From: Lactobacillus sp. ESL0677
GTDB taxonomy: Bacteria; Bacillota; Bacilli; Lactobacillales; Lactobacillaceae
Length of the DNA stretch: 64,000 nt
Assembly: GCF_029392875.1 (NCBI RefSeq)
Contig: NZ_CP113946.1
Location: 186,001 to 250,000, forward strand
Reading direction: 5' to 3'
The translations under genes and the position numbers were made by a program. Under the pieces are notes generated by a model. That model worked only from the letters and a program-made list of their open reading frames with translations, ran no database searches and was not told the origin of the DNA. The number at the start of each line of letters is the position of its first letter. Positions within the stretch are counted from its first letter, which is position 1. This document shows, piece by piece, positions 35,334 to 61,975 of this stretch.

Positions 35334-38018
35334 ATGAAGAATCAAGATAAAGAAATTTTGAAATTAGTTAGTCAACAAACTAAGGTTTATTTAAAGAACT
35401 ATGCTACCAAAGAAGCACCAACAACTGAATTTGTTGCAAATAAGCTTAATGTAGAACGTTCAGTTGTTAGTAAAAGGCTAAATGAGCTCTATAAGAACAG
35501 GCAATTAAGTAAGGTAAATACAAGACCGGTCATTTATTTGCAGCTTAAAGAGGGAACTCAAAACAATAAAACCTACACAAGTGTCAAAGACTTAAAAGCT
35601 GGCCAACAAAAATCAATTTGGAGTCAAATCATTGGCTACAATGGTAGCTTGAAAGAGGCAATAGAACGGCTTAAAGCTGCTTTAATGTATCCACCAAATG
35701 GACTACCTGTCATTATTTTTGGCGAGTCTGGAACTGGTAAAACATTTATCATTAACAAATTATTCAAATATGCGAAGCAACGTAAACTTTTTAATGATGA
35801 TGCGCAGTTGATTGTAATAAATTGCGCTCAATATGCGAATAATCCTGAATTGTTATCTAGTCTGCTTTTCGGCTACACTAAAGGAGCTTTTACTGGGGCA
35901 GATATTGATAGTAGTGGTGCTCTTCAGTCGGCAAATAATGGCATTCTATTTTTAGATGAAGTTCATCGATTGAGCGCCGAAGGCCAAGAAAAGCTTTTTA
36001 CCTACTTAGATACAGGGTACTTTTCTCCAGTTGGTAATAATGCTAAAAAATTAAAAAGCAAAACTAGATTGTTTTTTGCAACAACAGAAAAGGAATCTGA
36101 TTTTTTGCAAACCTTTTTGCGTAGAATACCAATCAAAATCACATTACCATCCTTAGACCAGCGGGGAACGTATGAAAAAAGAGTTTTAACTTACGCTTTA
36201 CTGATAGGACAAGCTAAACGTATTAATTGTAATATCAAGATTTCTAAGCAATGCCTTAGCTTAATTTATCATAGTCATTTTCATGCCAATGTCGGTGAAT
36301 TAAAGAATTTATTACAAAACATTGTTGCTCAAAAATATGCAAAAGCTACACAAAAGCAAGAAATAGAAATAAAGATCGGTGATTTGCCGGGTGTAATTCT
36401 AGAACAAATGTCTAAGGATACTTACCCTTTAAGCCAAGGCGAAGAAAAGTGTATTTTTCATGCAACTGATACTATTCAAGAGCTATTTCATTATGATAAT
36501 AAAGGGTATATTTCAAAAATCGAAGCTTCTTGGCAATGTTTATTAAGCTTACAAAACGATCAAATAGCTGACAGGACAAGCTACTACAAAATCGTAGAAA
36601 AAGAAACACATGAGATTTTGTATTCAACTTACAGCACAGATCGCTCATTAATTACTGATTACACCAATGTATTAACGAATATTTTTAATGTTATTCAAAT
36701 TGATTCACTAAGCCTTAAAAACTCATCTGTGTATGATTTTGCTGTCTATATTTACTACTTAATGAGAAATGAGTTCGATCATGACTACACCGCTAACAAA
36801 GATGTCGCTAAAATTGAACAACTTTTTGCAACAGAACTGCAATTAATTAATAAAATGGCTCCATTAATTGAAATGCGTTTTGAAATAAAATTGCGAAAAT
36901 GCGATTATTTGTGGCTAGCTATTTTGAGTTCGAATGATAATTTTACAGTTTCATCTAAAATACCAGCAATTGTAGTAGCGCATGGCTATGCTACAGCAAG
37001 TAGTATGGCAGATACCTGTAATCATTTTTTGCAAAGTGCAGTTTTTACAGCAATTGATTTAAAGCCTGATGTTTCTCGTGCTGAAATGATTGCAAATTTG
37101 AAGGATTTAATTAAAAGAATTAATCCTCAAGATGGCTTAGTAATATTAATGGACATGGGCGCACTAGATTCAATTATTGAGCCAATTAGAAACGATTGTA
37201 ATTGTACCTTACTAGTAATCAATAACGTTAGCATGGCTGTAATTTTAGAAATTGGAAATAAGCTATTGCAACAAAAGGGATTACATGCGATCCAACATGA
37301 TTTACCTAGAGATACTATTAAAAGCAAACTTTGTGTTCCCAGAGTTGCTGCAGCTGCCACAATTATTACCACTTGCATGACTGGCGTCGGTAGTGCACAA
37401 AGAATTAAGACAATGTTAACGCAAAGTTTTACTAATCTGATAAATGTTCAAGTAGAAGCCTTTGACTTTAAAGAATTAGTAAATTATCGCGACTTAAATT
37501 TGTTTTTAAATAAAAATGTGATTGCAATTGTAGGCATTGATAATCCTGATGTTCCTGGAGTGCCATATTTTGGTTTAGAAGAAATTATTTCTGGCACTAA
37601 AATAGAGGGCTTAAAGCGAATTCTAGAGCCATTTTCAACTACTAAAAAAATTGAATTATGGGAAAACCGGCTAATTGAGAACTTTTCTCTAAACAGAATA
37701 ATAGATACCTTAACTATTATTTCTCCGGACAAGGTAATGAAAGTCATCAGTAAATATTTAACTGGCGTTCAAAAGGACTTAAATATGAAAATTCCCAATA
37801 AGGTCGCTATCTCATTGTATGTTCATATTGCAAATATGGTTGAAAGAATTATCCGTGGTAATGAAATTGAAGCTTACGAGGGAGACAACAAGAACATTGT
37901 TAAAGATAGCTGCTTTAGTGTGCTAAAAAAGCATAATAGTGTGCTGGAAAATGAATTTTTAATTAAAATCACCGACCCGGAAACTGCATACATAAGAGAC
38001 ATTCTTCTATTGAGTTAA
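35334..38018 (+). CDS. LevR-type sigma-54-dependent activator with PTS regulatory domains (copy 1)
   Basis: An 894-residue bacterial enhancer-binding protein. Order: N-terminal helix-turn-helix (about 1-65), AAA+ domain (about 95-345) with Walker A FGESGTGKT and the sigma-54-contacting loop GAFTGA (YTKGAFTGADI), then PTS regulatory domains flanking an EIIA-Man-like domain (VVAHGYATASSM, His candidate) and an EIIB-like loop (CMTGVGSAQR, Cys candidate). Phosphorylation by PTS proteins should tune its activity. The adjacent mannose-family PTS operon has a -24/-12 promoter, and rpoN is in this window, so activation of that operon is very likely. ATG 35334 has AGAGGTG upstream. Confidence 0.93.
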   Translation: MKNQDKEILKLVSQQTKVYLKNYATKEAPTTEFVANKLNVERSVVSKRLNELYKNRQLSKVNTRPVIYLQLKEGTQNNKTYTSVKDLKAGQQKSIWSQIIGYNGSLKEAIERLKAALMYPPNGLPVIIFGESGTGKTFIINKLFKYAKQRKLFNDDAQLIVINCAQYANNPELLSSLLFGYTKGAFTGADIDSSGALQSANNGILFLDEVHRLSAEGQEKLFTYLDTGYFSPVGNNAKKLKSKTRLFFATTEKESDFLQTFLRRIPIKITLPSLDQRGTYEKRVLTYALLIGQAKRINCNIKISKQCLSLIYHSHFHANVGELKNLLQNIVAQKYAKATQKQEIEIKIGDLPGVILEQMSKDTYPLSQGEEKCIFHATDTIQELFHYDNKGYISKIEASWQCLLSLQNDQIADRTSYYKIVEKETHEILYSTYSTDRSLITDYTNVLTNIFNVIQIDSLSLKNSSVYDFAVYIYYLMRNEFDHDYTANKDVAKIEQLFATELQLINKMAPLIEMRFEIKLRKCDYLWLAILSSNDNFTVSSKIPAIVVAHGYATASSMADTCNHFLQSAVFTAIDLKPDVSRAEMIANLKDLIKRINPQDGLVILMDMGALDSIIEPIRNDCNCTLLVINNVSMAVILEIGNKLLQQKGLHAIQHDLPRDTIKSKLCVPRVAAAATIITTCMTGVGSAQRIKTMLTQSFTNLINVQVEAFDFKELVNYRDLNLFLNKNVIAIVGIDNPDVPGVPYFGLEEIISGTKIEGLKRILEPFSTTKKIELWENRLIENFSLNRIIDTLTIISPDKVMKVISKYLTGVQKDLNMKIPNKVAISLYVHIANMVERIIRGNEIEAYEGDNKNIVKDSCFSVLKKHNSVLENEFLIKITDPETAYIRDILLLS

Positions 38019-38034
38019 GCGCTCGCACAGTACT

Positions 38035-38050
38035 TGGAACGTCTTTTGCT
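38035..38050 (+). promoter_or_regulatory. Sigma-54 (-24/-12) promoter of PTS operon 1
   Basis: TGGAACGTCTTTTGCT matches TGGCACGNNNNTTGCW except one base. The invariant GG (38036-38037) and GC (38048-38049) have the required spacing. It starts 17 bases after the activator stop and 45 bases before the EIIA gene. Confidence 0.88.
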
Positions 38051-38094: not shown

Positions 38095-38514
38095 GTGAAA
38101 GATATTATTTTAGCTACTCATGGCAATTTGGCCTTTGAGTTTAAGAAGACAGCCGAATTAATCGTTGGTCATATTGATAACATTCAATGCTTCGGAATGA
38201 CTAAAGATAAATCTGCTGCAAAAGGGCAAAAAGAGTTAGAAAATCTAATCAAAAATACTGACGAAGATAATCTAATTATCTTAACTGACCTATATGGTGG
38301 CAGTTCCAACAATATTTGTACTGAATTGTTACTTAAAGGTCACCACTTCCAACTACTTTCAGGTCTTAACTTACCGTTATTGCTTACATTTTTAACGATT
38401 GATTCTTCAAACATGACATCAAAAGAATTGGTTAAGCAATTAAAGGAAGCAGGAGTTGCCGGTATTATCGACGTTAGCGAAAAGATTGAAAGAGGTGTGG
38501 CTAGCGATGATTAA
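38095..38514 (+). CDS. PTS mannose-family EIIA component (operon 1)
   Basis: A 139-residue cytoplasmic phosphocarrier. The active His is in ILATHGNLAFEF near the N-terminus, and TDLYGGSSNNICTE is the family's second conserved segment. It takes phosphate from HPr and passes it to EIIB. The start is GTG, because the nearby ATG (38093) is followed at once by a stop in its frame; GGGAGG lies about 8 bases upstream. It is the first gene after the sigma-54 promoter and overlaps EIIB by 8 bases. Confidence 0.9.
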   Translation: MKDIILATHGNLAFEFKKTAELIVGHIDNIQCFGMTKDKSAAKGQKELENLIKNTDEDNLIILTDLYGGSSNNICTELLLKGHHFQLLSGLNLPLLLTFLTIDSSNMTSKELVKQLKEAGVAGIIDVSEKIERGVASDD

Positions 38515-38995
38515 GTTAGTTCGTGTTGACGAGAGATTATTACATGGTCAGGTTGCGATAGGTTGGACTTCCAATTCAGGTGCAAACACAATTCTAGTAG
38601 CCAATGATGAGGCTCAACAAGATAAGGTTAAAGCAATGGCATTAGATTTAGCTAAGCCTGCTGGTGTTAAGCTTTACATTCGAAACGTGGCTGAATCAGG
38701 CGAAATTGTTAATAAATTTGCTTCTGCAAAGAAAGCACAAGTATTAGTTTTAGTGCGTAATATTCAAGACGCCCTGAAGCTCATTAAAGGTTCAAATGGC
38801 ACTATTACAAACTTAAATGTTGGTGGCGTTAAATTTGAAGATGGCAAGAAAAAGTTGAATGACTTTGTTGCTGTTTCGGATCAAGACATTGTAGACCTGA
38901 AAGAAATTCAAAAGATGGGAGTTGAACTTGATTTTAGGATGTTACCTAGAGATAAGAAACTAAGTCTTTCTGATTTATTGGGGAGTGATAAATAA
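38507..38995 (+). CDS. PTS mannose-family EIIB component (operon 1)
   Basis: A 162-residue cytoplasmic protein with the phosphorylated His in RVDERLLHGQVAIGW. I chose ATG 38507, inside the end of EIIA (overlap of 8 bases), since AGAGGTG stands 9 bases upstream and the protein then begins with the standard MIKLVRVDERLLHG. A longer upstream frame has no ribosome site. It transfers phosphate to the incoming sugar with EIIC and EIID. Confidence 0.92.
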   Translation: MIKLVRVDERLLHGQVAIGWTSNSGANTILVANDEAQQDKVKAMALDLAKPAGVKLYIRNVAESGEIVNKFASAKKAQVLVLVRNIQDALKLIKGSNGTITNLNVGGVKFEDGKKKLNDFVAVSDQDIVDLKEIQKMGVELDFRMLPRDKKLSLSDLLGSDK

Positions 38996-39792
38996 TGATA
39001 CAAGCTTTATTAATCGGCTTAATTGCCGGTATCGGTATGCTTGATGAACGTGTACTGGGTGCGACTTTATTTTGCAGACCTATCGTTTTAAGCCTTTTTG
39101 TAGGTTTAGCATTGGGCGATTTAAAACAAGGAATTATTATTGGTGCGCAACTTGAGTTAGTTTGGATGGGAATTGCTGGTATTGGCGCTTCAACTCCTCC
39201 AGACTACGTTACTGGTGGTGTCATTGGTACAGCAATGGCAATTATTTCACACCATGGTATTGGGATTGCTTTAACGATTGCAGTTCCTGTTGCAGTTTTA
39301 GCTGCTAACCTCGGTACCTTAGTTCGTGTTGGTAACCTATGGTTTTCTCATAAAGCAGAAAAATATGCGGAAACGGCTAATTTTAGAGGGGTAAACATGA
39401 TGTTGCTTTTGCCAACGATCTTATTCTTCTTTAGTGCTTTTATCCCTGCTTTTTTAGCAATGCTTGTGGGTTCTTCAACAATTAATGTAATCATTAATGC
39501 TATTCCTAAAGTGATTTTAGACGGCTTAACCATTGCTGGTAATCTCTTACCAGCCGTTGGTTTTGGGTTATTACTTGATATGCTATTTTCGAAAAAGCTG
39601 TTTGTATTCTTCTTCATTGGTTTCTTTCTCTGCGCTTATCTGAAATTAGACATTACTGGTATTGCAATTCTCGCAATTTGTTTAGCTATTGTAATAACTA
39701 TCTTTGGTAAGAATAATAATGATTCTTCTGACCAAAAAGATGAAACAAAGACAGAAGATAATTTAACGGAAGGGGATATTGATTTTGAATAA
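38995..39792 (+). CDS. PTS mannose-family EIIC component (operon 1)
   Basis: A 265-residue membrane permease subunit. The N-terminal half shows DERVLGATLFCRPIVLSLFVG and GAQLELVWMGIAGIGAS, both typical of EIIC of the mannose/sorbose/fructose branch, and several hydrophobic segments follow. The C-terminal tail is acidic. The start shares one base with the EIIB stop (TAATG). With EIID it forms the transmembrane channel. Substrate not readable from the sequence. Confidence 0.9.
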   Translation: MIQALLIGLIAGIGMLDERVLGATLFCRPIVLSLFVGLALGDLKQGIIIGAQLELVWMGIAGIGASTPPDYVTGGVIGTAMAIISHHGIGIALTIAVPVAVLAANLGTLVRVGNLWFSHKAEKYAETANFRGVNMMLLLPTILFFFSAFIPAFLAMLVGSSTINVIINAIPKVILDGLTIAGNLLPAVGFGLLLDMLFSKKLFVFFFIGFFLCAYLKLDITGIAILAICLAIVITIFGKNNNDSSDQKDETKTEDNLTEGDIDFE

Positions 39793-40594
39793 GAAAACTT
39801 TAACCAAAAAAGACCTCCACTCAATCTTTTGGCGTGCATTTGCACTACAAGGTGGTTTTAACTACGAAAAAATGCAAAATATTGGCTATGCTTATGCAAT
39901 GGAACCTGCCATTAAACGCTTATATTCATCGGCTAAAGACCGAGCTGCTGCTTTAAAACGTCACTTAGCACTGTTTAATTGTACGCCAGCAATGACCCCA
40001 ACAATTTTGGGTATTTCTTGTGCTATGGAAGAGCAATATGCCAATAATCCTGACGAAATCAATCCTGATTCAATCAACTCTGTTAAAGCATCCCTGATGG
40101 CACCATTTTCTGGAATTGGTGATTCAATTTTATTTGGTACCTTTAGAGTAATCGCAGCTGGTGTCGGCGTGTCATTCTCAAAGCAAGGAAATATTTTAGG
40201 CCCGATCCTATTCTTCGTACTTTATAACTTACCAGCAACTTTACTTAGAGTATTCGGCCTCAAGTATGGCTATGAGTGGGGTGTAGAGTCACTCGACAAA
40301 GTGCAAAAAAATGGTGTTATGGATCAAATCATGCAAATTGTTGGAATAGTCGGCATGATGGTCGTAGGTGGCATGGTCGCAACTATGCTGCCAGTAACTA
40401 CACCTCTTAAATTTGCAATGAGTGGTGCAACAATTAAAATTCAATCAATATTAGACAAAATTATTCCTGAAATGCTACCGCTGTTAGCTACTTTGTTAGT
40501 ATTTTGGCTAATCAGAAAGAAAGTAAGTACGTCAAAATTAACAATTAGCGTTTTGATTTTAGGTATTTTATTACACGTTATTGGGATTTTATAA
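39785..40594 (+). CDS. PTS mannose-family EIID component (operon 1)
   Basis: A roughly 269-residue membrane protein of the EIID family: FWRAFALQGGFNYEKMQNIGY, AMEPAIKRLY, LFNCTPAMTPTILGI and KASLMAPFSGIGDSILFGT. It ends with hydrophobic segments. The start is non-ATG: TTG at 39785 is favoured because AAGGGGA lies about 8 bases upstream; TTG 39779 is the alternative. The gene overlaps the end of EIIC. It completes the permease and is followed by a sugar isomerase/deglycase gene. Confidence 0.9.
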   Translation: MNKKTLTKKDLHSIFWRAFALQGGFNYEKMQNIGYAYAMEPAIKRLYSSAKDRAAALKRHLALFNCTPAMTPTILGISCAMEEQYANNPDEINPDSINSVKASLMAPFSGIGDSILFGTFRVIAAGVGVSFSKQGNILGPILFFVLYNLPATLLRVFGLKYGYEWGVESLDKVQKNGVMDQIMQIVGIVGMMVVGGMVATMLPVTTPLKFAMSGATIKIQSILDKIIPEMLPLLATLLVFWLIRKKVSTSKLTISVLILGILLHVIGIL

Positions 40595-40608
40595 GGGAGA
40601 TTTAAAAA

Positions 40609-41667
40609 ATGAATTTAATTCAGCAATATATTTCAGAAACACCAAAGCAATTGGACAAAATTGTTAAGGGTAGTAAGGAGCTTTTCGCTAATGTAGCAAA
40701 AAGAGATATTAATAAAATTATTATTACTGGTTCAGGTACCAGTTACCATTCAGGTTTGCAAATGCAATCTTTGATGAGAAAACGTTCCGGAATTGAAGTT
40801 CTCGCTTTTTATCCCTTTATGCTAACGCCTGACTTCTTTGTTGGCGACAACACACGCACATTGCTCATTGGTATTTCACAAGGTGGCAGCAGCTTTAGTA
40901 CCTTTAACGCCATGAAGACTGCTAAAAAGGCTGGCTGCATTGTTGGCACAATGGCTGGCGAAACTGGTGCCTACATTGACCAAATTGCAGACGAAGTTAT
41001 GACTGTTAATATTGGTGAAGAAAAAGCTGGAGCTAAGACCAAAGGTTATTATTGTACGAAATTAAATTTGCTACTGTTAGCTGACTACATTGGACTTGAA
41101 AACGGCAATTTAACTAAAGATCAATTTGACGAAGATATTAGCAATTTGAACCAAACGCTAGAGCAATTTCCTCATGCTTATGACCGTGCTTACAAGTGGG
41201 TTGAAGAACATAAAGAGAAGTTAGCAAAGACTGATAACTTACGTGTAGTTGGACCTTCTATGCTGTATGGGGATGTCTTAGAAAGCTCACTCAAAGTATT
41301 GGAAACTTGCCGGATGCCAGTTACCGGATATGACTTTGATGAGTTCATTCATGGTATTTATAACGCAATGAATGAAAGGGCTAGTGTTGTTATCTTAGAT
41401 AATGGCACAGAGCCACGTTGTCAAAAGATGATTGAGGTCTTAGGCGACTGGACCAACAACTTATATTTGGTTGATACCTCTGATGCTAACAATGGTAATC
41501 ACTTTGGTTATGACGTTGATGTTCCTAAGGACTTTGAAACCTTTATTTATCCAATGCTTATGCAAGTAATGGCATCAATCGTTCCAACTGTTATGGGCTT
41601 TGATCCCAATACTCCTAAAGACCCTAACTTCCACATGAAGCTGGGTAGTAAAAAATTTAACCACTAA
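40609..41667 (+). CDS. SIS-domain sugar-phosphate isomerase/deglycase
   Basis: A 352-residue cytoplasmic protein with two SIS folds (GSGTSYHSGLQMQSL at about residue 44 and SQGGSSFSTFNA at about 90). It resembles GlmS isomerase-domain proteins such as FrlB and the Salmonella Gfr deglycases, which act on fructoselysine- or glucoselysine-6-phosphate. The layout LevR activator, sigma-54 promoter, EIIA-B-C-D, SIS protein is like the gfr operon, so an Amadori-type amino sugar is the leading idea for the substrate. An aminosugar isomerase is the alternative. GGGAGATTT precedes the ATG. It closes the operon. Confidence 0.8.
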   Translation: MNLIQQYISETPKQLDKIVKGSKELFANVAKRDINKIIITGSGTSYHSGLQMQSLMRKRSGIEVLAFYPFMLTPDFFVGDNTRTLLIGISQGGSSFSTFNAMKTAKKAGCIVGTMAGETGAYIDQIADEVMTVNIGEEKAGAKTKGYYCTKLNLLLLADYIGLENGNLTKDQFDEDISNLNQTLEQFPHAYDRAYKWVEEHKEKLAKTDNLRVVGPSMLYGDVLESSLKVLETCRMPVTGYDFDEFIHGIYNAMNERASVVILDNGTEPRCQKMIEVLGDWTNNLYLVDTSDANNGNHFGYDVDVPKDFETFIYPMLMQVMASIVPTVMGFDPNTPKDPNFHMKLGSKKFNH

Positions 41668-41825: not shown

Positions 41826-42688
41826 TTAGCGAATTACCACAGCTCTTGCATGTCTGCTTTTACTGGTAAAAATACGCATAAACTGCTGAGTCGTTACCCA
41901 AAATGACTTATTTGGCCAAGACTTTTTCATATACGGATCAGCTATCAAAAATTGACCTTTTTTGTAGCCAACAAGAGCAAGTACATGGTATGGTCGCCCA
42001 TTTTGATAATGCCATGAACCTGCAGTTATTACTGCATTCCCATGTTTGACCTCGTTAATTAACGTTTTCTTTGAAGTGCCTGAAATATTTGCAGCATTAT
42101 CGTCGTATTTTTTAGCATAATCAGTCAAAGGCTTAGGATAAATTGTCCAAACAACATTATTGGGGCTTTCCTTATAGGGATTTCCATTAAAACCTGTTTT
42201 TGGGCTTGAACTTTTAGGCATATTCTTAATGATCGTCTTTAAACTAGTTTTCAGCGCAATTCCTTTAACCGACAAAGCCATTTTAAGACTTGCAGTTTCA
42301 CAGGCATTAGGCGCATAAAGTGGATATAGATGTGTAGGGGAGAACGTATTTATTAGTTTTGCTTAAAGCACTGCTATTTATTAAGCCAACCATAATTATG
42401 ACCACGCCGGCTAATTTCAAAATATTTTGTTCCGTTGACTACAGCTACTTTATCCAATTGCACAAGCTTGTGTTTTAACTTTTTCGTTTTAGTTAAAGGC
42501 TTTGCTTCATTATTTTCATTTGTATCTGGTGGTTGTGACCATAGTTGATATTTAGCAGAGCTTACCTGACGACAATTATAATTACGAGCAGATTGAATAA
42601 CTGGTGTTGCATTAGTAGCTGCCTGGACTTTGATACTAGTACACATCATTAGTGAACTCAATAATAGCAAGACTTTCCACATATTCAT
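41826..42688 (-). pseudogene. Broken C39-like peptidase gene (secreted, SH3-like N-terminal part)
   Basis: Two minus-strand fragments look like one gene. The upstream part (42688-42374, 104 residues) has a signal peptide (LLLLSSLMMCTSIKVQA) and an SH3-like segment ending HNYGWLNK, then TAG. The downstream part (to 41826) has the C39-like end (RPYHVLALVGYKKGQFLIADPY, with catalytic-type His). Its frame runs upstream of its first Met to about 42360 and encodes YPLYAPNACETASLKMALSV, with the probable catalytic Cys in NACE. So the Cys lies outside any intact ATG frame. A stop and a frameshift near 42355-42375 separate the halves. Secreted activity is therefore probably lost. Sequencing error cannot be excluded. 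Confidence 0.75.
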
Positions 42689-52151: not shown

Positions 52152-52175
52152 CAAATCGTATAGGAGATGATTTGA

Positions 52176-53537: not shown

Positions 53538-53547
53538 GTATAGATTA

Positions 53548-53754
53548 ATGAAAAACATTTCAAATAAAAAGTTTTTTTGGACATGTTTATCTTTTCTAGC
53601 TTTCGGACTATTCAGTCTAGCTCTTATAACTAAGACCTATTGGCTAAATATCTTCGTTATTATTTTGGGATTACTAATTAATAAGAAGGGAAGTGATACT
53701 CTTTTTGTTAAAAAGCGTTGGTCTACTAAAAATAATATAAGGAGGAAAAAATAA
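53548..53754 (+). CDS. Small two-span membrane protein, unknown
   Basis: A 68-residue protein with two predicted helices (FFWTCLSFLAFGLFSLALI and YWLNIFVIILGLLI) and a strongly basic tail (KKRWSTKNNIRRKK). It lies between EIIC and the aldolase gene, 10 bases after one and 3 bases before the other. The ribosome site (AGGTATAGATTA) is weak. Position in the operon makes a real gene likely. It may assist the permease, but no family is recognised. Confidence 0.55.
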   Translation: MKNISNKKFFWTCLSFLAFGLFSLALITKTYWLNIFVIILGLLINKKGSDTLFVKKRWSTKNNIRRKK

Positions 53755-53757
53755 TTT

Positions 53758-54528
53758 ATGAAATATCCTGCAGGAAGAATTCCTTTTGAATATGAACGTG
53801 AAGATTTAGCAAAAGTAGTTCGAGAAGTAATGGAACGTCGTGATACTAATATTGTCGGTGGAAATATTAGTATTAAAGTTCAAGACGAAGCTGGTAAAGA
53901 TTACTATGTAATGACACCAACAATGATGTCAGAAGCATATATGGGTTATTTAAATGCTGATCAAATTTTAGTGATTGAACCACACACGCGTAAAGTTATT
54001 TCTGGAAATGGTAAGGTAACTCGTGAAATTAATATGCACGAAGCAATTTATGATACTAATCCAGATATTAAATGTGTCTTTCACTCTCATGCTGATCAAT
54101 GTATGTTCTGGGGTACAAGTGGTTTGAATATGCCTAATGTTACAGAGGCTACACAAAAGTTGAAAGAAATAAGAACTCTAGATTGGCATCCAATGTGTAC
54201 AGAAGAACTGGCGCAGTATGTTGCGGGAGAAATTAAAAAGCTGGGTTCAAAAGCTTTACGAAATGGTTTTATCCTAAACTCACATGGTACTTTGTTTACA
54301 TCAGGTGGAAAGGATATGGATCCGCTAACTGCGTTACATAAGTCTTTAGCTGACGTAGATATTACTGAATATAATGCTAAGGTTGCATATAAGCAAACTG
54401 TATTTCAAGAAATTGGTGTCCTAGACGGATATTATTCCGAAGGTACAAAAATTGGTACTTGGGAAGATGTTAAAGCTGGTAAAGCACTTTATAACAAAAA
54501 AACAGCCCAAAATAAAAAGGGCGACTAA
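53758..54528 (+). CDS. Class II aldolase/adducin family protein (fuculose-phosphate-aldolase-like)
   Basis: A 256-residue metal-dependent aldolase of the AraD/FucA superfamily. The zinc ligands appear in FHSHADQC (His-x-His) and NSHGTLF, and the catalytic Glu candidate in NMHEAIYDTN. It lacks the phosphate-binding Ser-Gly pattern of araD in the same place and has longer insertions, so it is not a second epimerase copy. It is last in the operon with the galactitol-type PTS. It could cleave a ketose-1-phosphate to DHAP and an aldehyde. AAGGAGGAAAAAATAATTT precedes the ATG. Confidence 0.8.
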   Translation: MKYPAGRIPFEYEREDLAKVVREVMERRDTNIVGGNISIKVQDEAGKDYYVMTPTMMSEAYMGYLNADQILVIEPHTRKVISGNGKVTREINMHEAIYDTNPDIKCVFHSHADQCMFWGTSGLNMPNVTEATQKLKEIRTLDWHPMCTEELAQYVAGEIKKLGSKALRNGFILNSHGTLFTSGGKDMDPLTALHKSLADVDITEYNAKVAYKQTVFQEIGVLDGYYSEGTKIGTWEDVKAGKALYNKKTAQNKKGD

Positions 54529-54642: not shown

Positions 54643-54670
54643 GGAATAAAAATATGGATTGAGGAATTTT

Positions 54671-57235
54671 ATGAGTGTAGCAGAAAAACGAGTTTATGAT
54701 GAATTAGCAAAACAAGCTTCTGAGCATGCTATTCCTACTCTTCAATTAGCAGAGAATTTAAAATTATCTAGATCTGTAGTTAGTCACTATCTTAATAAGT
54801 TATTAAAAGAACATAAAGTAAGGAAAATTGCGGGTAGACCAGTAAAATGGGAAATAACAGAGCATCTATCTCCTGATTTCTCTCAGGTTTTTACTGACTT
54901 TATAGGATATAAGGGCTCAATGAAACATATCATTGATCAGGTTAAAGCAGCAGTAGTATATCCTCCAAATGGATTAAATATTTTAATTACAGGTCATTCA
55001 GGTGTTGGCAAAAGTTATTTGGCAAATAAAATTTATCGTTATTCTATAAGTAAACAAATTAAAAAAGTTGGTGCACCATATATTACTTTTAATTGTGCTA
55101 ATTATGCTGATAATCCAGAATTAATTTCTAGTACTTTGTTTGGATATGTGAAAGGGGCTTTTACGGGCGCAAATGAAGAAACTGAAGGGCTTTTAAAACA
55201 GGCCAATGGTGGATTCTTATTTTTAGATGAAGTTCATCGTTTAAGTAGTGAAAATCAAGAAAAATTGTTTAGTTTTATTGATACGGGTAAATTTTATAAA
55301 GTAGGTGATAATATTCATGCTGAAAAAACTAATGTTCGATTGATAATGGCAACTACGGAGAATCCAGATAAGGTCTTATTGACAACATTTTTAAGGCGAA
55401 TACCAGTAAAAATAAAATTACCTGATTATATAAATCGACCAATTGATGAGCGATTAGAATTATTGAAGTTACTTGTTTATAAAGAAGCAAGAAAAATAAA
55501 TAAAAGTATCTGTGTCGATCAGCATGTCGTTTCTGCATTATTACAAATAAAGCATGCAGGAAATATTGGATATATTAAGAATATTATTCAACTTGCTTGT
55601 GCATCGGCATATAATCGTGATTTAAATTTGCCCACAATTAATGTAACTGTTTCTAATCTGCCTTTGAATAATTTACCTGAATATTATAATTGGGGAACTA
55701 TTTTAGTTGATCCAAATGAAAAAATAAAATTTATTTCACAATATGATTTTTCGCTAGGATTAGATGATTTAAAAATATCAATTCATCGGTTAGCAGAAAA
55801 TTATTCATTAAAAAAGTTACGAGCTTGTCAAACAAAACTTCAAAATTTAAATAGTATAAATAATAAAATTGAATTTGAGACGGGGCTTCATATACAGCAT
55901 CAACGTATTTTTTCAGAAATTATTCAAAAGAGGTATGGATTAAATATGGCAACATCAATTGAGCCACTGATATTCATATTATATAAAAACCACTTTAAGA
56001 TTACGAAAATAGATAGAGAAAGTTTAACTAAAATTTTTTCAAAGAAGTTACCACGTTCATTTCATATAGCAGATATTTTTTATCAACAATTGCCAATATT
56101 GGATAAAATAAGCAAAAACTCTTTAATGATAATTTTTACTATCTTAATAAGTCAATTTGTTGATGAAAATATTAAATTGCGTGCTTTAATGGTTGCACAT
56201 GGAGAAAATACTGCTACCAGTATTCAGGCTGTCGTTAATTCCTTATGTGAAAATTATATTTTTGATGCAATTGATATGCCTATTGATGCTAATGTTTCTT
56301 CCATTATTAAAGAAGCAAATAAATTAATAGACAGTTTCAACACAACTAATGGCTTTGTGTTGATGATAGATATGGGCTCATTAGAACAACTTTATTCTAA
56401 AATTAATTCACATTTAGATGGTGATTTATTAGTAATTAATAATTTAACTACCCTGACAGCACTTGATGTTGCGATTAAAATTAAACAGAATACACCATTT
56501 AAAAAGATTGCCGAAAAAGCAGACCAAGATTACGCAATTGAAGCAAAATATTATGAAGGCTTTTCTCAATTACCTAATATTTTGGTTTCATGTGTTTCGG
56601 GGCTAGGAATTGCTGAAAAAGTAAGTGAAATAATTAGACCATTCATGCCAGCCGATATTAAGACAATTGCAATTAGTTATGATTCTTTGAAAGAAAAAAT
56701 AATGAGAAAGGAATGGTCATATTTTGATCGTACACTTTTTGTGTTGACAACGATTGATATCACTAAAGATGTGAAGTTTAAACATATGAATTTATATAAT
56801 TTGTTGGATGCAAGTGGTGAAGAAAAATTACGTGATTGGTTGACCCCATACTTATCATCAGAGCAGATAATAAATTTTAATAATCAAATTGTTCGTTTCT
56901 TTTCTAAAGAAGGAATTGCTGAGAGATTAAGTTTTTTAAATCCTGACGTAGTTATTGGTGAGGTAGAAACAATTATTAATAAATATGAACTGCTTTATAA
57001 AGTGAAATTTGATGGTAAATTCAAGCTTAATTTATATATGCATATCGCACTGATGATTGAACGACTAATGCTTCATAATTCATCAGTTAGTGTGGAAAAG
57101 TCGATATCTAAAAAGGAGGCAAAATTTTTCAAAATAACGCATAGTGTTTTTCAACCAATTGAAATAAAATACAACATTAGAATTACGGCTACAGAAATGA
57201 ATATTTTATATGAGTTGTTTAGTCAATTTATTTAA
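54671..57235 (+). CDS. LevR-type sigma-54-dependent activator with PTS regulatory domains (copy 2)
   Basis: An 854-residue paralogue of the activator at 35334 with the same domain order: N-terminal winged helix (about 1-65), AAA+ domain (about 80-320) with Walker A GHSGVGKSY and the sigma-54 loop YVKGAFTGANEE, then PTS regulatory and EIIA/EIIB-like domains (MVAHGENTATS, SCVSGLGIAEK). It stands directly before a second mannose-family PTS operon with its own -24/-12 promoter. ATG 54671 has TTGAGGAA upstream. A TTG at 54659 would add four residues. The base composition is more AT-rich than in copy 1. Confidence 0.92.
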   Translation: MSVAEKRVYDELAKQASEHAIPTLQLAENLKLSRSVVSHYLNKLLKEHKVRKIAGRPVKWEITEHLSPDFSQVFTDFIGYKGSMKHIIDQVKAAVVYPPNGLNILITGHSGVGKSYLANKIYRYSISKQIKKVGAPYITFNCANYADNPELISSTLFGYVKGAFTGANEETEGLLKQANGGFLFLDEVHRLSSENQEKLFSFIDTGKFYKVGDNIHAEKTNVRLIMATTENPDKVLLTTFLRRIPVKIKLPDYINRPIDERLELLKLLVYKEARKINKSICVDQHVVSALLQIKHAGNIGYIKNIIQLACASAYNRDLNLPTINVTVSNLPLNNLPEYYNWGTILVDPNEKIKFISQYDFSLGLDDLKISIHRLAENYSLKKLRACQTKLQNLNSINNKIEFETGLHIQHQRIFSEIIQKRYGLNMATSIEPLIFILYKNHFKITKIDRESLTKIFSKKLPRSFHIADIFYQQLPILDKISKNSLMIIFTILISQFVDENIKLRALMVAHGENTATSIQAVVNSLCENYIFDAIDMPIDANVSSIIKEANKLIDSFNTTNGFVLMIDMGSLEQLYSKINSHLDGDLLVINNLTTLTALDVAIKIKQNTPFKKIAEKADQDYAIEAKYYEGFSQLPNILVSCVSGLGIAEKVSEIIRPFMPADIKTIAISYDSLKEKIMRKEWSYFDRTLFVLTTIDITKDVKFKHMNLYNLLDASGEEKLRDWLTPYLSSEQIINFNNQIVRFFSKEGIAERLSFLNPDVVIGEVETIINKYELLYKVKFDGKFKLNLYMHIALMIERLMLHNSSVSVEKSISKKEAKFFKITHSVFQPIEIKYNIRITATEMNILYELFSQFI

Positions 57236-57245
57236 GATAAAACTC

Positions 57246-57290
57246 AATACTAAATTTTACGGAAAGAATTAGTAAAATTTAGTATTTTTT
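57246..57290 (+). terminator. Intrinsic terminator after activator copy 2
   Basis: AATACTAAATTTTAC (57246-57260) pairs perfectly with GTAAAATTTAGTATT (57272-57286), then T. It isolates the activator from the PTS operon. Confidence 0.88.
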
Positions 57291-57303: not shown

Positions 57304-57334
57304 AGTGTTTAAACAATTATTTAAATTAAACACT
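57304..57334. promoter_or_regulatory. Inverted repeat, candidate enhancer site for the sigma-54 activator
   Basis: AGTGTTTAA (57304-57312) and TTAAACACT (57326-57334) are perfect 9-bp arms. Their starts are 22 bases apart, about two helical turns. It lies 50 bases upstream of the -24 element of PTS operon 2 and downstream of a terminator, so it is the natural candidate for activator binding. Confidence 0.6.
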
Positions 57335-57383: not shown

Positions 57384-57399
57384 TGGCATATGTTTTGCT
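57384..57399 (+). promoter_or_regulatory. Sigma-54 (-24/-12) promoter of PTS operon 2
   Basis: TGGCATATGTTTTGCT contains the invariant GG (57385-57386) and GC (57397-57398) with the right spacing and matches TGGCACGNNNNTTGCW at all but two positions. It lies 27 bases before the EIIA start. Confidence 0.9.
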
Positions 57400-57425: not shown

Positions 57426-57842
57426 ATGAAAAAAATTCTATTGGCATCACATGGTAAATTAGCTAGTGGTATTAGAAGTTCTATTAAAATTTTAACTGGT
57501 AAGGAAAAGAATCTTAGAATTATTGATGCTTATGTTGATGATTCAGACTTTACAGGTCAAATTATTGATTTTATAGCTAGTATAGATGCAAATGATCAAG
57601 GATTTATTTTTACTGATATTTATGGGGGAAGTGTTAATCAAAAAGTTGTGTCAGAAGTTATAAACTCAGGTAAGAAAAATATTTATGTAATTACAGGAAT
57701 GAACTTACCGATTGTTTTATCAATATTATTAGCGACAGGTAATATTTCAATGCATAACTTACAAGAAATGATTAATGATAGTCAACTAAAAATAGTAGAG
57801 GTTAAAGTAAATAAAAATAAAGAAGATGACTTTTTTAGTTAG
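57426..57842 (+). CDS. PTS mannose-family EIIA component (operon 2)
   Basis: A 138-residue phosphocarrier with the active His in LLASHGKLASGIRSS and the second signature FTDIYGGSVNQKV. AGGGAGGAAAAAG precedes the ATG. It is the first gene after the sigma-54 promoter. A HAD hydrolase gene, not EIIB, comes next. The protein is similar in layout to the EIIA at 38095 but distinct in sequence. Confidence 0.92.
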   Translation: MKKILLASHGKLASGIRSSIKILTGKEKNLRIIDAYVDDSDFTGQIIDFIASIDANDQGFIFTDIYGGSVNQKVVSEVINSGKKNIYVITGMNLPIVLSILLATGNISMHNLQEMINDSQLKIVEVKVNKNKEDDFFS

Positions 57843-57850
57843 TAAAAATC

Positions 57851-58492
57851 ATGATTAAGACAATTTTATTTGATTGGGATGGAACGCTTTTAAATAGTAA
57901 TGATTTGATTAATGAATCGAATATGTATGCACTTAATAAATACGGTGATCACACTTTTACTGTAGATGAAGTTAAACCCTTTAATGGAAGACACTTAATA
58001 GATGTATATCGTGAATTATATCCAGGATTAGAAGATAAAATATTATATACCTATAATACATATAGCGATTTACGGCATGATCAAAGTGTTCGATTATTTC
58101 CAGATGTTAAAGAAGTTTTACAGAAATTAAAAAATTTAGGATGTCATTTGGGAGTAGTTTCGATGAAACGTAAGTATATGGTTAATCATGGGTTGAATTT
58201 ATTTAATTTAACTTCTGTATTTGACGTTGTAATTGGTGGTGATGAATGCAAAAAGAGAAAACCTGATGCTGAACCAATATTAATTGCAATGCAAAAAATA
58301 AATGCCAATCCTAAAGAAACTTTGATGATTGGTGATAATTGGCAGGATATTGAATCTGCTAATAATGCTCATACGCGCAGCGTGTTTGTTACTTGGTCGC
58401 AAAAAAATTATGAACAGATTCGCCCGTATCAACCAACTTATTGTATTGATAGAATGCCGGATTTATTACAAATAGTAAGGGAGGAAAAATAA
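57851..58492 (+). CDS. HAD-superfamily phosphatase embedded in PTS operon 2
   Basis: A 213-residue haloacid-dehalogenase-type hydrolase. The nucleophile motif is LFDWDGTLLNS (Asp-x-Asp), motif II VVSMK with Ser replaced by a close equivalent position, motif III Lys in GGDECKKRKPDAEPI, and motif IV IGDNWQDIESA. The cap is helical (type C1), as in phosphoglycolate phosphatase or PpaX. The gene lies between EIIA and EIIB with 8 and 2 bases to the neighbours, so it is part of the transcript. It probably acts on the phosphorylated PTS product or a by-product. No good ribosome site is seen before the ATG. Confidence 0.85.
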   Translation: MIKTILFDWDGTLLNSNDLINESNMYALNKYGDHTFTVDEVKPFNGRHLIDVYRELYPGLEDKILYTYNTYSDLRHDQSVRLFPDVKEVLQKLKNLGCHLGVVSMKRKYMVNHGLNLFNLTSVFDVVIGGDECKKRKPDAEPILIAMQKINANPKETLMIGDNWQDIESANNAHTRSVFVTWSQKNYEQIRPYQPTYCIDRMPDLLQIVREEK

Positions 58493-58494
58493 TA

Positions 58495-58995
58495 ATGATA
58501 GTACAGGTTAGAGTAGATGATAGATTGATTCATGGACAAGTAGCACTTGTATGGAGTAGAGAATTGAATGCTTCTGCAATTTTAGTTGCCAATGATGGTG
58601 CAGCTGAAAATGATGTTGCTCAAATGACAATGAAAATGGCAATGCCTAGTGATAAAAAATTATTGATCCGTGGTATTAAAGATTCTATTAGTGTTTTAAA
58701 TGATCCACGAGGAAAAAATATGAGAATTTTTGTTGTGACTAATTGTGTTAAAGACGCATATGAAATTGCAAAAAATGTTGATCAAGTGGAACAAGTCAAT
58801 GTAGCAAATGCGGGAAGATTTGATCAAACTGATAAATCAAAGATTATTAGATTTAATTCGGCAATAGCACTTAATCCTAATGAAATTATTAAGTTAAAGG
58901 AATTAGATAAATTGTCTGATGTTGAGGCATTTTCGCAAGGATTACCTACTTCTGAAAAACTAACAATTCCACAATTAATTAATGGTAAAGCTTAA
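58495..58995 (+). CDS. PTS mannose-family EIIB component (operon 2)
   Basis: A 166-residue cytoplasmic protein with the phosphorylated His in RVDDRLIHGQVALVW. GGGAGGAAAAATA precedes the ATG, two bases after the HAD stop. The C-terminal part (LNPNEIIKLKELDKL) matches the family fold. Confidence 0.92.
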   Translation: MIVQVRVDDRLIHGQVALVWSRELNASAILVANDGAAENDVAQMTMKMAMPSDKKLLIRGIKDSISVLNDPRGKNMRIFVVTNCVKDAYEIAKNVDQVEQVNVANAGRFDQTDKSKIIRFNSAIALNPNEIIKLKELDKLSDVEAFSQGLPTSEKLTIPQLINGKA

Positions 58996-59020
58996 TTTTT
59001 TAAGAAAGAGAGGGAAAATA

Positions 59021-59842
59021 ATGTTAAAAGCAGCATTAATTGCTATGTTAGTTATGCTTCTTTGTTATGCAGGAAGTTATTTAACAGGCAATAGTTATAT
59101 TGATCGTCCAATTGTGATAGGTGCTGTAGCAGGACTGTTTTTGGGAAATTTAAAACTTGGCTTAACAATTGGGGCTACCCTAGAAGCCGTATTTATGGGA
59201 GCACTAAATGTTGGTGGTGTAATTTCATCTGAGCCGGCTATTGCAACAGTATTAGCTGTAACTTTTGCGGTCACAACGAATATTAGTCAAAAGGCAGCAG
59301 TTACGTTAACTATACCAATAGGTGTTTTAGCAGCTTTTGTTTTATTAGCATTGAAAAATGGTGTCATGATTATTTTTGCACCTATTTTGGATAAATTAGC
59401 AGCAACTAATAATCAAAAAGGCTTAATCTTCATTCATTTTTTATCCTGGTTTATTTATTATGGGATTTATGCAGTAATGACTTTTATAGGCGTTTATGCT
59501 GGCTCTTCTGCAATAAGTTCATTAGTCAAATTTATTCCTCAAAATTTAATGGCGGGATTGAATACTGCAGGTGGACTATTACCGGCTGTTGGATTTGCAA
59601 CGTTAATGAAAATATTATGGGATAATAAACTGGCAGTATTTTATTTACTAGGGTTTGTATTGACGATTTATTTGAATTTACCGGCAGTAGCAATTGCATG
59701 TATTGGTATTGCAATAGTGGTTGTAATGGCATTTCGTGATAAAGATATTTTGGATTTAAAGAAGAAAAAATCTGCTGTGGCAACAAAAGTAAACAATGGT
59801 TTAGACCAAAAACAACAAGAAGAGGAGGACTTTTTCGCATGA
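59021..59842 (+). CDS. PTS mannose-family EIIC component (operon 2)
   Basis: A 273-residue permease. SYIDRPIVIGAVAGLFLGN and GATLEAVFMGALNVGG are EIIC signatures; several hydrophobic segments follow, then a charged tail rich in Lys, Gln and Glu. I chose ATG 59021, with AGAGAGGGAAAATA upstream; the in-frame ATG at 58982 lies within EIIB and adds a basic stretch with no ribosome site. It overlaps EIID by 4 bases. Confidence 0.9.
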   Translation: MLKAALIAMLVMLLCYAGSYLTGNSYIDRPIVIGAVAGLFLGNLKLGLTIGATLEAVFMGALNVGGVISSEPAIATVLAVTFAVTTNISQKAAVTLTIPIGVLAAFVLLALKNGVMIIFAPILDKLAATNNQKGLIFIHFLSWFIYYGIYAVMTFIGVYAGSSAISSLVKFIPQNLMAGLNTAGGLLPAVGFATLMKILWDNKLAVFYLLGFVLTIYLNLPAVAIACIGIAIVVVMAFRDKDILDLKKKKSAVATKVNNGLDQKQQEEEDFFA

Positions 59843-60666
59843 AAATAACAGAAAATTTATCAAAAGAAGAAAAGAAAATGTTAAATTCGATGTCGCTACG
59901 TTCCTTTGCGATGCATGCTGATCGAATGGGACCTGCAAAGTTCCATGCTAGTGGGTTTACATTTTGTATGTTACCGGCAATCAACAGATTCTATAAGACA
60001 ACGAAAGATAAAGAGGCAGCGTTAATAAGGCATGTACAATGGTATAATTGTACTCCTCATGCAGAAAACTTGATTTTAGGTATTGTTGCATCAATGGAAA
60101 AAGAAAAGAGTCTTCGAGGCGATGACTTTGACGATCAATCAATTACTGCCGTAAAGACTTCGTTGATGGGACCTTTATCTGGGATTGGTGATACTTTCTT
60201 TCAAGGAATTCTTAGAGTTATTGCAGCAAGCATTGGGATAGGTCTTTCAATGCAGGGCTCGATTATGGGACCAATTTTGTTTCTACTTATTTATAATATA
60301 CCAGCTGTTTTTTTATCGTTTTATTTAACGTATGTAGGTTATAGCTTAGGATCAACCTTTATTCAGCGTGTATATGAAAGTGGTGGTATGCAAATTCTGA
60401 CTAAGGCTGCAAGTACCTTGGGATTACTTATGATGGGCTGTATGACTGCAATGAATGTCAAGTTTAAAACTACAATTGCATTAAGTATTGGTAAAGGAAA
60501 GCCGATTGCTCTACAAGGATACTTAGATCAATTATTTAAAGGTTTAGTTCCACTTCTGATTACAGTTGGATGTTTTTATCTTTTACGTAAAAGAGTTAAT
60601 ATTAACTGGGTTATGTTGGGAATATTTATATTGTCAATTGTTTTAGGATTAATTGGTGTAGTATAA
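59839..60666 (+). CDS. PTS mannose-family EIID component (operon 2)
   Basis: A 275-residue membrane protein of the EIID family: RSFAMHADRMGPAKFHASGF, MLPAINRFYKTTKDKEAAL, QWYNCTPHAENLILGI and KTSLMGPLSGIGDTFFQGI. It begins inside the EIIC stop (ATGA) with AGAGGAGGA upstream. No sugar-metabolising enzyme follows; the next gene is rpoN, 46 bases on. Confidence 0.9.
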   Translation: MKITENLSKEEKKMLNSMSLRSFAMHADRMGPAKFHASGFTFCMLPAINRFYKTTKDKEAALIRHVQWYNCTPHAENLILGIVASMEKEKSLRGDDFDDQSITAVKTSLMGPLSGIGDTFFQGILRVIAASIGIGLSMQGSIMGPILFLLIYNIPAVFLSFYLTYVGYSLGSTFIQRVYESGGMQILTKAASTLGLLMMGCMTAMNVKFKTTIALSIGKGKPIALQGYLDQLFKGLVPLLITVGCFYLLRKRVNINWVMLGIFILSIVLGLIGVV

Positions 60667-60712
60667 TGAACAAAAATACTAGTAATAAATTTGACTAAAA
60701 GGAGAAAAGTCG

Positions 60713-61975
60713 ATGGCACGATTGCAAAAAATGGTTTTAAAACCAAAAGAGCAGCTTGTCACACGGCTTTTTTTGTCACCCAAATTAAAGCAAAATTTGA
60801 CAGTTCTGTCATACAGTACTTATGACTTAGTTAATGTGATGAAGGATTTGGCTGAAAGCGATCCGTTTGTATCGCTAAAGCAGCCGCAAAATAGTGAGCA
60901 CAGTTTAGAATGGCTGCGAACACCAAAAGGGGAAAACTTAGTTGACCATTTATTAATGCAGGTTGAGCTAAATAATTGGCGCAGTAAGGAAAAGCAAGTA
61001 GTTAAATTATTAATTTACAATTTAGACCAGGATGGATATTTACGAGTTGACCTGACTGAGCTTGCTACGCAAACAGAGTTTCTTGTTGCGGAATTAATTC
61101 ACGCTCGCGATTTGTTACAAGAGCTTGATCCATGTGGTATTGGTGCAGGTGACTTAGCGGAATGCTTACTATTGCAGGCAAAAAAACAGCCTGATTTTAA
61201 TTCGATTGCCATAGAATTGTTAACCAATAAGCAATTGTCGCTATTAGCAGATAAACAAAAATGGTCAGATAGTAGTTATTCACAGAAGCAACTGCAACAG
61301 GCATTAAGCAGTATTCAAACCTTAAATCCACTGCCGGCGAGTCAGTTTATTAATAACACCAATACGCAATATCTAATTCCTGACCTAATTTACCGGGTAA
61401 ATGATGGTCGTCTAACAATTGAGAGCTTTCAAAATCAAATCCCTGAAATTTTATTTGACGAGCATAGTTTTTCTAAGTTAAGGAAGCAATCTGAGCAAAA
61501 ACAGTATTTTTCTGAACAAAAACAGCGTTATGTTGAATTAAAAGCCGCCATTATGCATCGCCACCAAACATTAATGCGGTTAGGAAAATTTGTTGGTGAG
61601 CAGCAGTATGCTTTTTTGACTACTCTTGAAAAAGAGCAATTGCGACCGCTGGGGTTAAAGGAGGCAGCTCGCGAGTTGAATTTAGCCCCAAGCACTATTA
61701 GTCGGGCAATTAAAGATAAGTACATTCAATGTCAAAACAAAATTTTTAGTTTGAAGCTGCTGTTTCCGCGAGCAGTCACAGCCGACTTGTCACAGGCAAA
61801 GATTGAGTATGACTTAATGCAGCTGATTAAGAATGAGGACCATGTTAATCCCTTGAGTGATCAGCAGCTAGTCGAGCAATTTGCGGCCAAAGGAATTAAC
61901 TTAAGTCGGCGCGTGATTACGAAGTATCGCCAAAAGTTGAATATCGCTAATAGTTATCAACGCAAAACAAAATAA
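60713..61975 (+). CDS. rpoN: RNA polymerase sigma-54 factor
   Basis: A 420-residue alternative sigma factor that recognises -24/-12 promoters and needs an enhancer-binding ATPase. Region I (LSPKLKQNLTVLSYSTYDL) is glutamine-poor compared with proteobacterial RpoN, the core-binding domain spans about 70-240, a helix-turn-helix LGLKEAARELNLAPSTISRA lies near residue 320, and the RpoN box reads SRRVITKYRQKL near the C-terminus. AAAAGGAGAAAAGTCG precedes the ATG. The gene follows PTS operon 2 without a clear terminator. The two LevR-type activators and two matching promoters make a closed regulon in this window. Confidence 0.95.
   Translation: MARLQKMVLKPKEQLVTRLFLSPKLKQNLTVLSYSTYDLVNVMKDLAESDPFVSLKQPQNSEHSLEWLRTPKGENLVDHLLMQVELNNWRSKEKQVVKLLIYNLDQDGYLRVDLTELATQTEFLVAELIHARDLLQELDPCGIGAGDLAECLLLQAKKQPDFNSIAIELLTNKQLSLLADKQKWSDSSYSQKQLQQALSSIQTLNPLPASQFINNTNTQYLIPDLIYRVNDGRLTIESFQNQIPEILFDEHSFSKLRKQSEQKQYFSEQKQRYVELKAAIMHRHQTLMRLGKFVGEQQYAFLTTLEKEQLRPLGLKEAARELNLAPSTISRAIKDKYIQCQNKIFSLKLLFPRAVTADLSQAKIEYDLMQLIKNEDHVNPLSDQQLVEQFAAKGINLSRRVITKYRQKLNIANSYQRKTK

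What the first reader, a model, noticed from the sequence alone, without database searches (positions are those of the whole stretch)
35334..61975. A closed sigma-54 regulon: rpoN, two LevR-type activators and two -24/-12 promoters in 27 kb
Two enhancer-binding proteins with intact GAFTGA loops each precede a mannose-family PTS operon, and each operon has a near-consensus -24/-12 promoter (38035-38050 and 57384-57399). The sigma-54 gene lies directly after the second operon. Sequence shows every part; family knowledge says sigma-54 in lactobacilli mostly serves such PTS operons. Here rpoN appears to be dedicated to these two sugars, and may be read from the second operon.
Basis: partly seen in the sequence, partly recalled or inferred. 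Interest (0 to 1): 0.75.

Follow-up and report, generated by a model that had tools for sequence, protein, structure and literature searches.

The report
Sigma-54 gene inside its own regulon
In this Lactobacillus, a specialised transcription factor (sigma-54) appears to serve three sugar-uptake operons, each with its own activator, and its gene sits at the end of one of them, so the factor probably helps to switch on its own production; several related species show the same layout, which would make it a small self-contained genetic switch.

Summary
In detail: two LevR-type activators with GAFTGA loops, two EII-Man operons, two -24/-12 sites at the stated places, and rpoN 46 bp behind the second operon. 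'Closed, two operons, 27 kb' is wrong in number: a third complete unit (activator, perfect -24/-12 site, EII-Man operon) lies about 176 kb beyond rpoN. Corrected, the circuit looks nearly closed: one rpoN, three activators, and 55 genome matches to TGGNAYN5TTGCW of which only three lie outside open frames, each before the operon beside an activator. That rpoN is read from operon 2 is likely but unproven: no terminator was found between them, a strong one follows rpoN, and in 12 of 20 rpoN loci of the genus sample rpoN directly follows a PTS operon, whose content differs between species; 6 have none in front. In five species picked among 13 with one activator, the rpoN-bearing operon has the only convincing intergenic site. 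Outside the genus, 16 of 39 rpoN genes examined sit at the standard cggR locus, 13 lie beside activator or PTS genes, 10 show neither. rpoN self-activation is known elsewhere, so this is a new variant. Own weak promoters for rpoN are not excluded.

The parts
35325..38018 (+). EBP1, LevR-type sigma-54 activator (897 aa)
   Evidence: Pfam Sigma54_activat, PRD and EIIA-man over cut-off; GAFTGA at residue 187
38035..38050 (+). -24/-12 site of operon 1, TGGAACGTCTTTTGCT; the only one of 44 genus sites with A in place of C at position 4
38095..41667 (+). operon 1: EIIA, EIIB, EIIC, EIID (Man/sorbose type) and a SIS-domain phosphosugar enzyme
   Evidence: Pfam; SIS protein matches PDB 3g68 'putative phosphosugar isomerase' E 8e-113
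54659..57235 (+). EBP2, LevR-type sigma-54 activator (858 aa)
   Evidence: Pfam; GAFTGA at residue 166; best solved chains are NtrC-type AAA+ domains
57246..57286 (+). A+T-rich hairpin with 15-bp arms and a T-rich tail behind EBP2, possible terminator between EBP2 and operon 2
   Evidence: inverted-repeat scan, sequence; not reported by the terminator scan, which asks for 3 G-C pairs
57304..57334 (+). palindrome AGTGTTTAA-N13-TTAAACACT, proposed EBP2 binding site; the only match in the genome
   Evidence: relatives
57384..57399 (+). -24/-12 site of operon 2, TGGCATATGTTTTGCT
57426..60666 (+). operon 2: EIIA, HAD hydrolase, EIIB, EIIC, EIID
   Evidence: Pfam
60713..61975 (+). rpoN (sigma-54, 420 aa), proposed last gene of operon 2, 46 bp after EIID; only rpoN found in the genome
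61970..62009 (+). strong terminator-like hairpin (18 pairs) overlapping the end of rpoN; none found between EIID and rpoN
   Evidence: the scan also lists a weak one inside the HAD gene at 58371-58385 (2 found, 2.4 expected in shuffles)

Best explanation
A three-branch sigma-54 circuit for sugar uptake. Each LevR-type activator acts at a private site beside its own EII-Man operon and, when its PTS substrate is present, lets sigma-54 RNA polymerase open the operon's -24/-12 promoter. rpoN is the last gene of branch 2, so substrate 2 should raise sigma-54 itself: positive feedback on branch 2 and potentiation of branches 1 and 3. A weak vegetative promoter near the 3' end of the EIID gene, or leakage, would supply the first sigma-54. 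Shown by sequence: genes, motifs, sites, order, counts, conservation. Inferred: activator-site binding, sugar sensing, read-through into rpoN, feedback.
For: One rpoN; three proteins match the activator domain at E 1e-36 or better, the other five matches are at E 1e-9 or weaker. Of 55 matches to TGGNAYN5TTGCW only 3 lie outside open frames, all 10-45 bp before the operon beside an activator. Proposed activator sites of branches 2 and 3 each occur once in the genome. No terminator-like site found between EIID and rpoN, a strong one at the end of rpoN. rpoN directly behind a PTS operon, gap 12-64 bp, in 12 of 20 genus loci; 13 with G015, gap 212 bp to a late called start. In five of the 13 one-activator genomes, picked because rpoN stands behind the operon, 26 matches to TGGCAYN5TTGCT give 6 outside frames of 80 aa: the rpoN operon in each of the five, and one in G013 that lies in a 74-residue open frame. 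rpoN (decayed and contig-cut traces counted) and activators co-occur: 19 both, 1 each alone, 28 neither in 49 good genomes. Where rpoN was not found (G023) the surviving activator has lost its GAFTGA loop.
Against: No expression data. 6 of 20 genus rpoN loci lack a PTS operon directly in front and keep a long rpoN frame, so operon transcription is not needed everywhere; in two one-activator genomes, G038 and G046, the activator is far from rpoN. TATAAT stands 46-51 bp before rpoN in the EIID-tail family and is kept in two species that lost the rest of the operon: a possible own promoter. G048 has 1 EIID gene against 8 in our genome, so the loss of its activators with rpoN is not specific. Branch 1 has a deviating site and its activator site was not found.
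Confidence: 0.7

Rival explanations
1. rpoN has its own vegetative promoter and its place behind a PTS operon has no regulatory meaning: the stretch before rpoN is simply a spot where PTS cassettes come and go.
For: In 13 of 13 Lactobacillus loci the aldo/keto-reductase gene follows rpoN (one gene between in L075) while the cassette in front varies or is absent; G017 and G038 keep only a tail of EIID with TATAAT before a full-length rpoN frame; TATAAT occurs within 55 bp of the called start in 10 of 20 loci.
Against: In the five MgtC-type species without the reductase gene behind rpoN the gap is 12-25 bp (64 bp in decaying G059), and TATAAT stands in the 120 bp upstream in 1 of 5; in the 13 genus loci with PTS genes in front, these belong to a unit with activator and -24/-12 site (the G059 site appears only); the sigma-70 scan finds no + strand promoter-like site between 58615 and rpoN, though that scan finds fewer sites than shuffles; rpoN also stands beside PTS or activator genes in other genera.
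Confidence: 0.25
2. Sigma-54 serves more genes than these three operons through less canonical sites.
For: Only one pattern family was read with its context; 137 looser matches exist, 100 of them listed; frames of 80 aa on either strand counted as coding, which can hide sites.
Against: Sigma-54 needs an activator; only three were found, all LevR-type and each beside an operon; the five other EIID genes of the genome have no match outside open frames near them; in the genus sample the site is nearly invariant, TGGCAYN5TTGCT in 43 of 44.
Confidence: 0.15
3. The system is already decaying: the deviating promoter of operon 1 marks it as weak and sigma-54 is on its way out, as in several sister species.
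For: Operon 1 site has A where 43 of 44 have C, its relative G010 has C; rpoN is reduced to a tail in G048, has four stops in G012, was not found in G023; in G059 the activator is split and the start region of rpoN interrupted; in G015 the rpoN frame appears shifted.
Against: All three activators with their loops, rpoN and the three operons are full length in this genome.
Confidence: 0.1

Closest known systems
Enterococcus faecalis sigma-54 with LevR-type activators MptR, MpoR, MphR, LpoR and their PTS operons (PMC8262876, passages read)
   Same: Each activator gene lies immediately upstream of its PTS genes; LevR-like control through PRD phosphorylation
   Different: The passages do not describe rpoN as part of such an operon ('autoregul' occurs 0 times in that text)
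Lactobacillus plantarum rpoN and mannose PTS (named in PMC3162934 and PMC3602190, passages read; the original paper not read)
   Same: Sigma-54 serves a mannose-type PTS
   Different: One activator is reported there (PMC3162934); the standard firmicute rpoN neighbourhood is cggR and glycolytic genes (PMC3162934), seen here in 16 of 39 rpoN genes outside the genus, not a PTS operon
Rhizobial prxS-rpoN2 operon activated by NifA (PMC3538637, passages read)
   Same: rpoN copy behind a gene with a sigma-54 promoter, giving positive feedback; a second weak promoter was proposed in R. etli
   Different: Second rpoN copy, nitrogen-fixation setting, NifA; here rpoN is the only copy and the operon is a sugar PTS
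Predicted rpoN autoregulation in Bacilli and other classes (PMC12316311, passages read)
   Same: States that rpoN genes read from sigma-54 promoters are enriched in Bacilli, implying autoregulation
   Different: Statistical prediction; species and operons not named in the passages read; its supplements were not open to me, so Lactobacillus cases may be among them

Membership tests
LevR-type sigma-54 activators | AAA+ sigma-54 interaction domain with GAFTGA loop and Walker A | tested here: met
   three of three in this genome
LevR-type sigma-54 activators | PRD and EIIA-like regulatory domains | tested here: met
   PRD over cut-off in all three; EIIA-man over cut-off in EBP1 and EBP3; in EBP2 only a weak match of residues 504-609 to chain 3gx1 (E 1e-5)
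LevR-type sigma-54 activators | N-terminal DNA-binding domain | tested here: inconclusive
   HTH_24 just over cut-off in EBP3 (22.6 against 21.9); none listed for EBP1 and EBP2
Sigma-54 (RpoN) | Core-binding and DNA-binding domains, RpoN box | tested here: met
   PF04963 and PF04552 over cut-off, TIGR02395 over cut-off; box reads SRRVITKYR (canonical box recalled)
Sigma-54 (RpoN) | Activator-interacting region I | tested here: inconclusive
   PF00309 19.6 bits, cut-off 23.8, though an alignable N-terminal region is present
Sigma-54-dependent EII-Man operon | -24/-12 promoter before the PTS genes | tested here: met
   (sequence only)
Sigma-54-dependent EII-Man operon | Expression depends on rpoN and on the neighbouring activator | not testable with these tools
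   needs mutants and transcripts
Auto-activated rpoN operon | rpoN co-transcribed from a sigma-54 promoter | not testable with these tools
   only gap, terminator scan and conservation seen

The most novel reading that the evidence does not exclude
In several Lactobacillus species sigma-54 exists only to transcribe one operon, and its gene is the last gene of that operon with no promoter of its own: a sigma factor, its activator and its sole target form a portable, bistable self-feeding switch, joined more than once in the family after rpoN left its standard locus, with sugar cassettes exchanged in front of it.
Probability: 0.2. Interest if true: 0.75.

Novelty: new variant of a known kind. 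Interest (0 to 1): 0.5.

Why it matters
Sigma-54 is usually treated as a broad, steadily made factor (recalled). Here it looks like a local part of sugar operons, with a regulon small enough to count (three operons; one in some sister species). That makes self-activation, memory and loss of an alternative sigma factor testable in a simple bacterium, and gives natural replicates: species with the operon in front of rpoN, species where it was deleted, and species that lost everything.

Tried and rejected
Rejected: 'only two operons' (third unit). Rejected as promoters: the three other perfect consensus matches (C1:900960, 1424562, 1933536), all inside open frames of 177, 429 and 267 aa, and 51854-51869 inside the 106-aa EIIB-like frame. 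Tried without result: codon conservation at the 3' end of EIID2 as a sign of an embedded rpoN promoter, and at the 3' end of EBP1 as a sign of a buried activator site; neither stands out. The sigma-70 scan finds fewer promoter-like sites than shuffles (11 against 22.5), so it says little. Joint loss in G048 was first taken as strong evidence and then weakened, because that genome has only 1 EIID gene against our 8.

Rows dropped or added: G012 (decayed activator, no frame of 500 aa) is not among the 47 activators; G012, G048 (tail) and G054 (rpoN cut by the contig end) are not among the 20 rpoN loci. In one search I counted G012, G048 and G054 by hand as rpoN traces. In one search the G059 site was hidden by an over-long frame; one search shows it, so 45 of 47 have a site if that filter is dropped. 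The five genomes were picked from 13 with exactly one activator; not given: G012, G015, G023, G038, G046, G054, G058, G059. Family: of 43 rpoN genes over the cut-off, 3 are of the genus; of the other 40, 39 were examined (30 auto-fetched, which are the best-scoring ones, and 9 more; G124 left out). Longer stretches were fetched for 20 of 24 places that I considered (left out G166, G107, G124, G164). The tree holds 38 of those 39 (the broken G081 gene missing) and 16 of the 20 genus loci.
Full report
What is there. The window is C1:186001-250000 of a one-contig genome of 2,028,798 bases. The nearest record in the one genome-contig scan is Lactobacillus sp. ESL0679 (98% identical RpoN); others are L. 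melliventris, L. kimbladii, L. kullabergensis, L. apis and L. helsingborgensis, which I recall as bee-gut species.

The regulon is three operons, not two. A genome search with the activator domain gives eight matches; three score at E 1e-36 or better and are LevR-type, five are at E 1e-9 or weaker. The third activator (917 aa, GAFTGA, PRD) lies at C1:424416-427169 and is followed by a perfect site, TGGCACGAAAATTGCT at 427275, and an operon of EIIB, TIM-barrel protein, EIIC, EIID, SIS protein and EIIA (the EII names come from likeness to the window's genes and Pfam). There is one rpoN. Of 55 genome matches to TGGNAYN5TTGCW (35 forward, 20 reverse; reversed control 16) I read the surroundings of all 55: 52 lie in open frames of at least 80 aa on one strand or the other, and 3 do not, namely the three sites before the three operons. 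Some of the 52 lie in short frames (95-107 aa), so a site or two could be misjudged. The genome has eight EIID genes, so sigma-54 would serve three of eight such systems.

Private wiring. In EBP2-type units a palindrome with halves like AGTGTTTAA and TTAAACACT begins 53-80 bp before the promoter; it is visible, exactly or with changes, in 12 of 13 units of this type (for G010 the listing shows only another hairpin). The exact form occurs once in this genome, at 57304-57334. A different palindrome before the third operon also occurs once. For EBP1 the -24/-12 site begins 16-17 bp after the activator's stop codon in four of four genomes, so its binding site is probably inside the activator gene; I did not find it.

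The genus. In 61 sampled genomes of the genus, 22 have rpoN over the cut-off and 23 have an activator at E 1e-18 or better. In the 49 good genomes, counting decayed and contig-cut rpoN as traces, 19 have both, one only an rpoN tail (G048), one only an activator (G023), 28 neither. Of 47 activator frames of 500 aa or more, 44 have a site with at most one mismatch (28 perfect), and one more (G059) appears when a frame filter is dropped. The site is TGGCAYN5TTGCT in 43 of 44; the exception is operon 1 of this window. In G023, where no rpoN was found, the activator loop is destroyed; in G015 the loop begins with D and the rpoN frame appears shifted in region I, unless that is a sequencing error. 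In the MgtC-type species the loop reads GAYTGA.

rpoN in its own operon. Of 20 rpoN frames over 300 aa in the genus sample, 12 follow a PTS operon with gaps of 12-64 bp, one more (G015) follows the equivalent of this window's operon 1 with a gap of 212 bp to a late called start, 6 have no PTS operon directly in front, and one is divergent from its activator. What stands last before rpoN differs among those 13: EIID of the HAD type in 4, a 234-239-aa gene in 7 (MgtC family in the two tested), a DUF2961 gene in 1, a SIS gene in 1. On the RpoN tree the seven context labels need 8 changes against a least possible 6, so cassettes were exchanged or lost at least a few times. G017 and G038 keep a remnant of the EIID 3' end in front of rpoN, so there the operon was deleted. 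Of 13 genomes with exactly one activator I took five in which rpoN stands behind the activator's operon: 26 genome matches to TGGCAYN5TTGCT leave six outside frames of 80 aa, the rpoN operon in each plus one in G013 that lies in a 74-residue open frame. For those five 'closed regulon' fits almost literally, with rpoN in it. In two others, G038 and G046, the single activator is far from rpoN, so no such loop exists there.

The family. In 121 genomes of the family, 41 have rpoN over the cut-off. Of 39 genes examined outside the genus, 16 have a CggR-like gene behind them (10 of 10 tested have the CggR_N and Sugar-bind domains; six judged by likeness). That is the standard firmicute neighbourhood of Francke et al. 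(PMC3162934; sections 8 and 11 and passages read), and in B. cereus cggR flanks rpoN (PMC4524646, passages). Of the other 23, nine stand behind a PTS or activator gene, or the last gene of such an operon, on the same strand (one, G069, at 273 bp; one, G081, with a broken rpoN), two stand before an activator, two are divergent from one, and ten show neither in the stretch seen, which was 3.3-9 kb for seven of them and 13 kb for three. Of the nine, four (G068, G069, G070, G177) show a -24/-12 match outside genes on the same strand before the operon; in the other five I saw none there, or only 3.5 kb (G166). On a quick tree the cggR group is one change (support 63); the five rows labelled 'operon' need five changes, at least four by well-supported branches, but genus Lactobacillus was labelled apart and is sister to one of them (G070), and an early gain with later losses is not excluded. 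The MgtC cassette (G070) and a cassette with relatives of the 715-aa and DUF2961 genes (G074) recur in other genera. Long branches, unequal stretches and the choice of best-scoring loci make the number of origins uncertain.

Mechanism. LevR-type control by PTS phosphorylation is established for relatives (PMC8262876, passages). Added here is that substrate 2 should raise sigma-54 and so all three branches. Against a pure loop: TATAAT within 55 bp of the called rpoN start in 10 of 20 loci (common in A+T-rich DNA), a cre-like AGAAAGCGCT before rpoN genes without PTS operon in G018, G029 and G046 (cre consensus recalled), and the logical need for some starting sigma-54. I think a weak own promoter plus stronger read-through is most likely.

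Known or new. Sigma-54 control of EII-Man operons by neighbouring LevR-type activators is known. rpoN self-activation is known in rhizobia (PMC3538637, passages) and was inferred statistically for Bacilli (PMC12316311, passages). I found no paper that describes rpoN as the last gene of a PTS operon in lactobacilli, in searches; these cover open-licence papers only, and I saw listings, plus passages of seven papers. In 2011 sigma-54 was reported among lactobacilli only for L. plantarum, P. pentosaceus and L. casei BL23 (PMC3162934, passage).

Noticed in passing
38018-38050: In all four EBP1-type units seen, the -24/-12 site begins 16-17 bp after the activator's stop codon, so the enhancer is probably inside the activator gene; no codon-level signal found.
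   Followed up: partly
L081, L082, L095 upstream of rpoN: A cre-like AGAAAGCGCT lies shortly before rpoN genes that have no PTS operon in front, which would suggest catabolite repression of sigma-54.
   Followed up: no
L131 3705-6251 (oriented with the activator on +): An orphan EBP2-type activator in a genome where no rpoN was found has lost its GAFTGA loop (ASATQA).
   Followed up: partly
51376-54528: A galactitol-type PTS (EIIC-GAT) followed by a class II aldolase lies between the two sigma-54 units; no -24/-12 match outside frames there.
   Followed up: no
41826-42688: Short minus-strand C39-peptidase-like and GW-domain frames between operon 1 and a GntR/LacI-type regulator, perhaps remnants of a surface protein.
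   Followed up: no
G117 and G121 (loci L273, L279, L281, L282): Two genomes of the family carry two rpoN genes; in G117 both lie beside PTS or activator genes, in G121 one lies before an activator.
   Followed up: partly
L085 (G058): A genome of the genus with a very divergent rpoN (29% identity to the window's), divergently placed from its activator and PTS operon, probably a separate acquisition.
   Followed up: no
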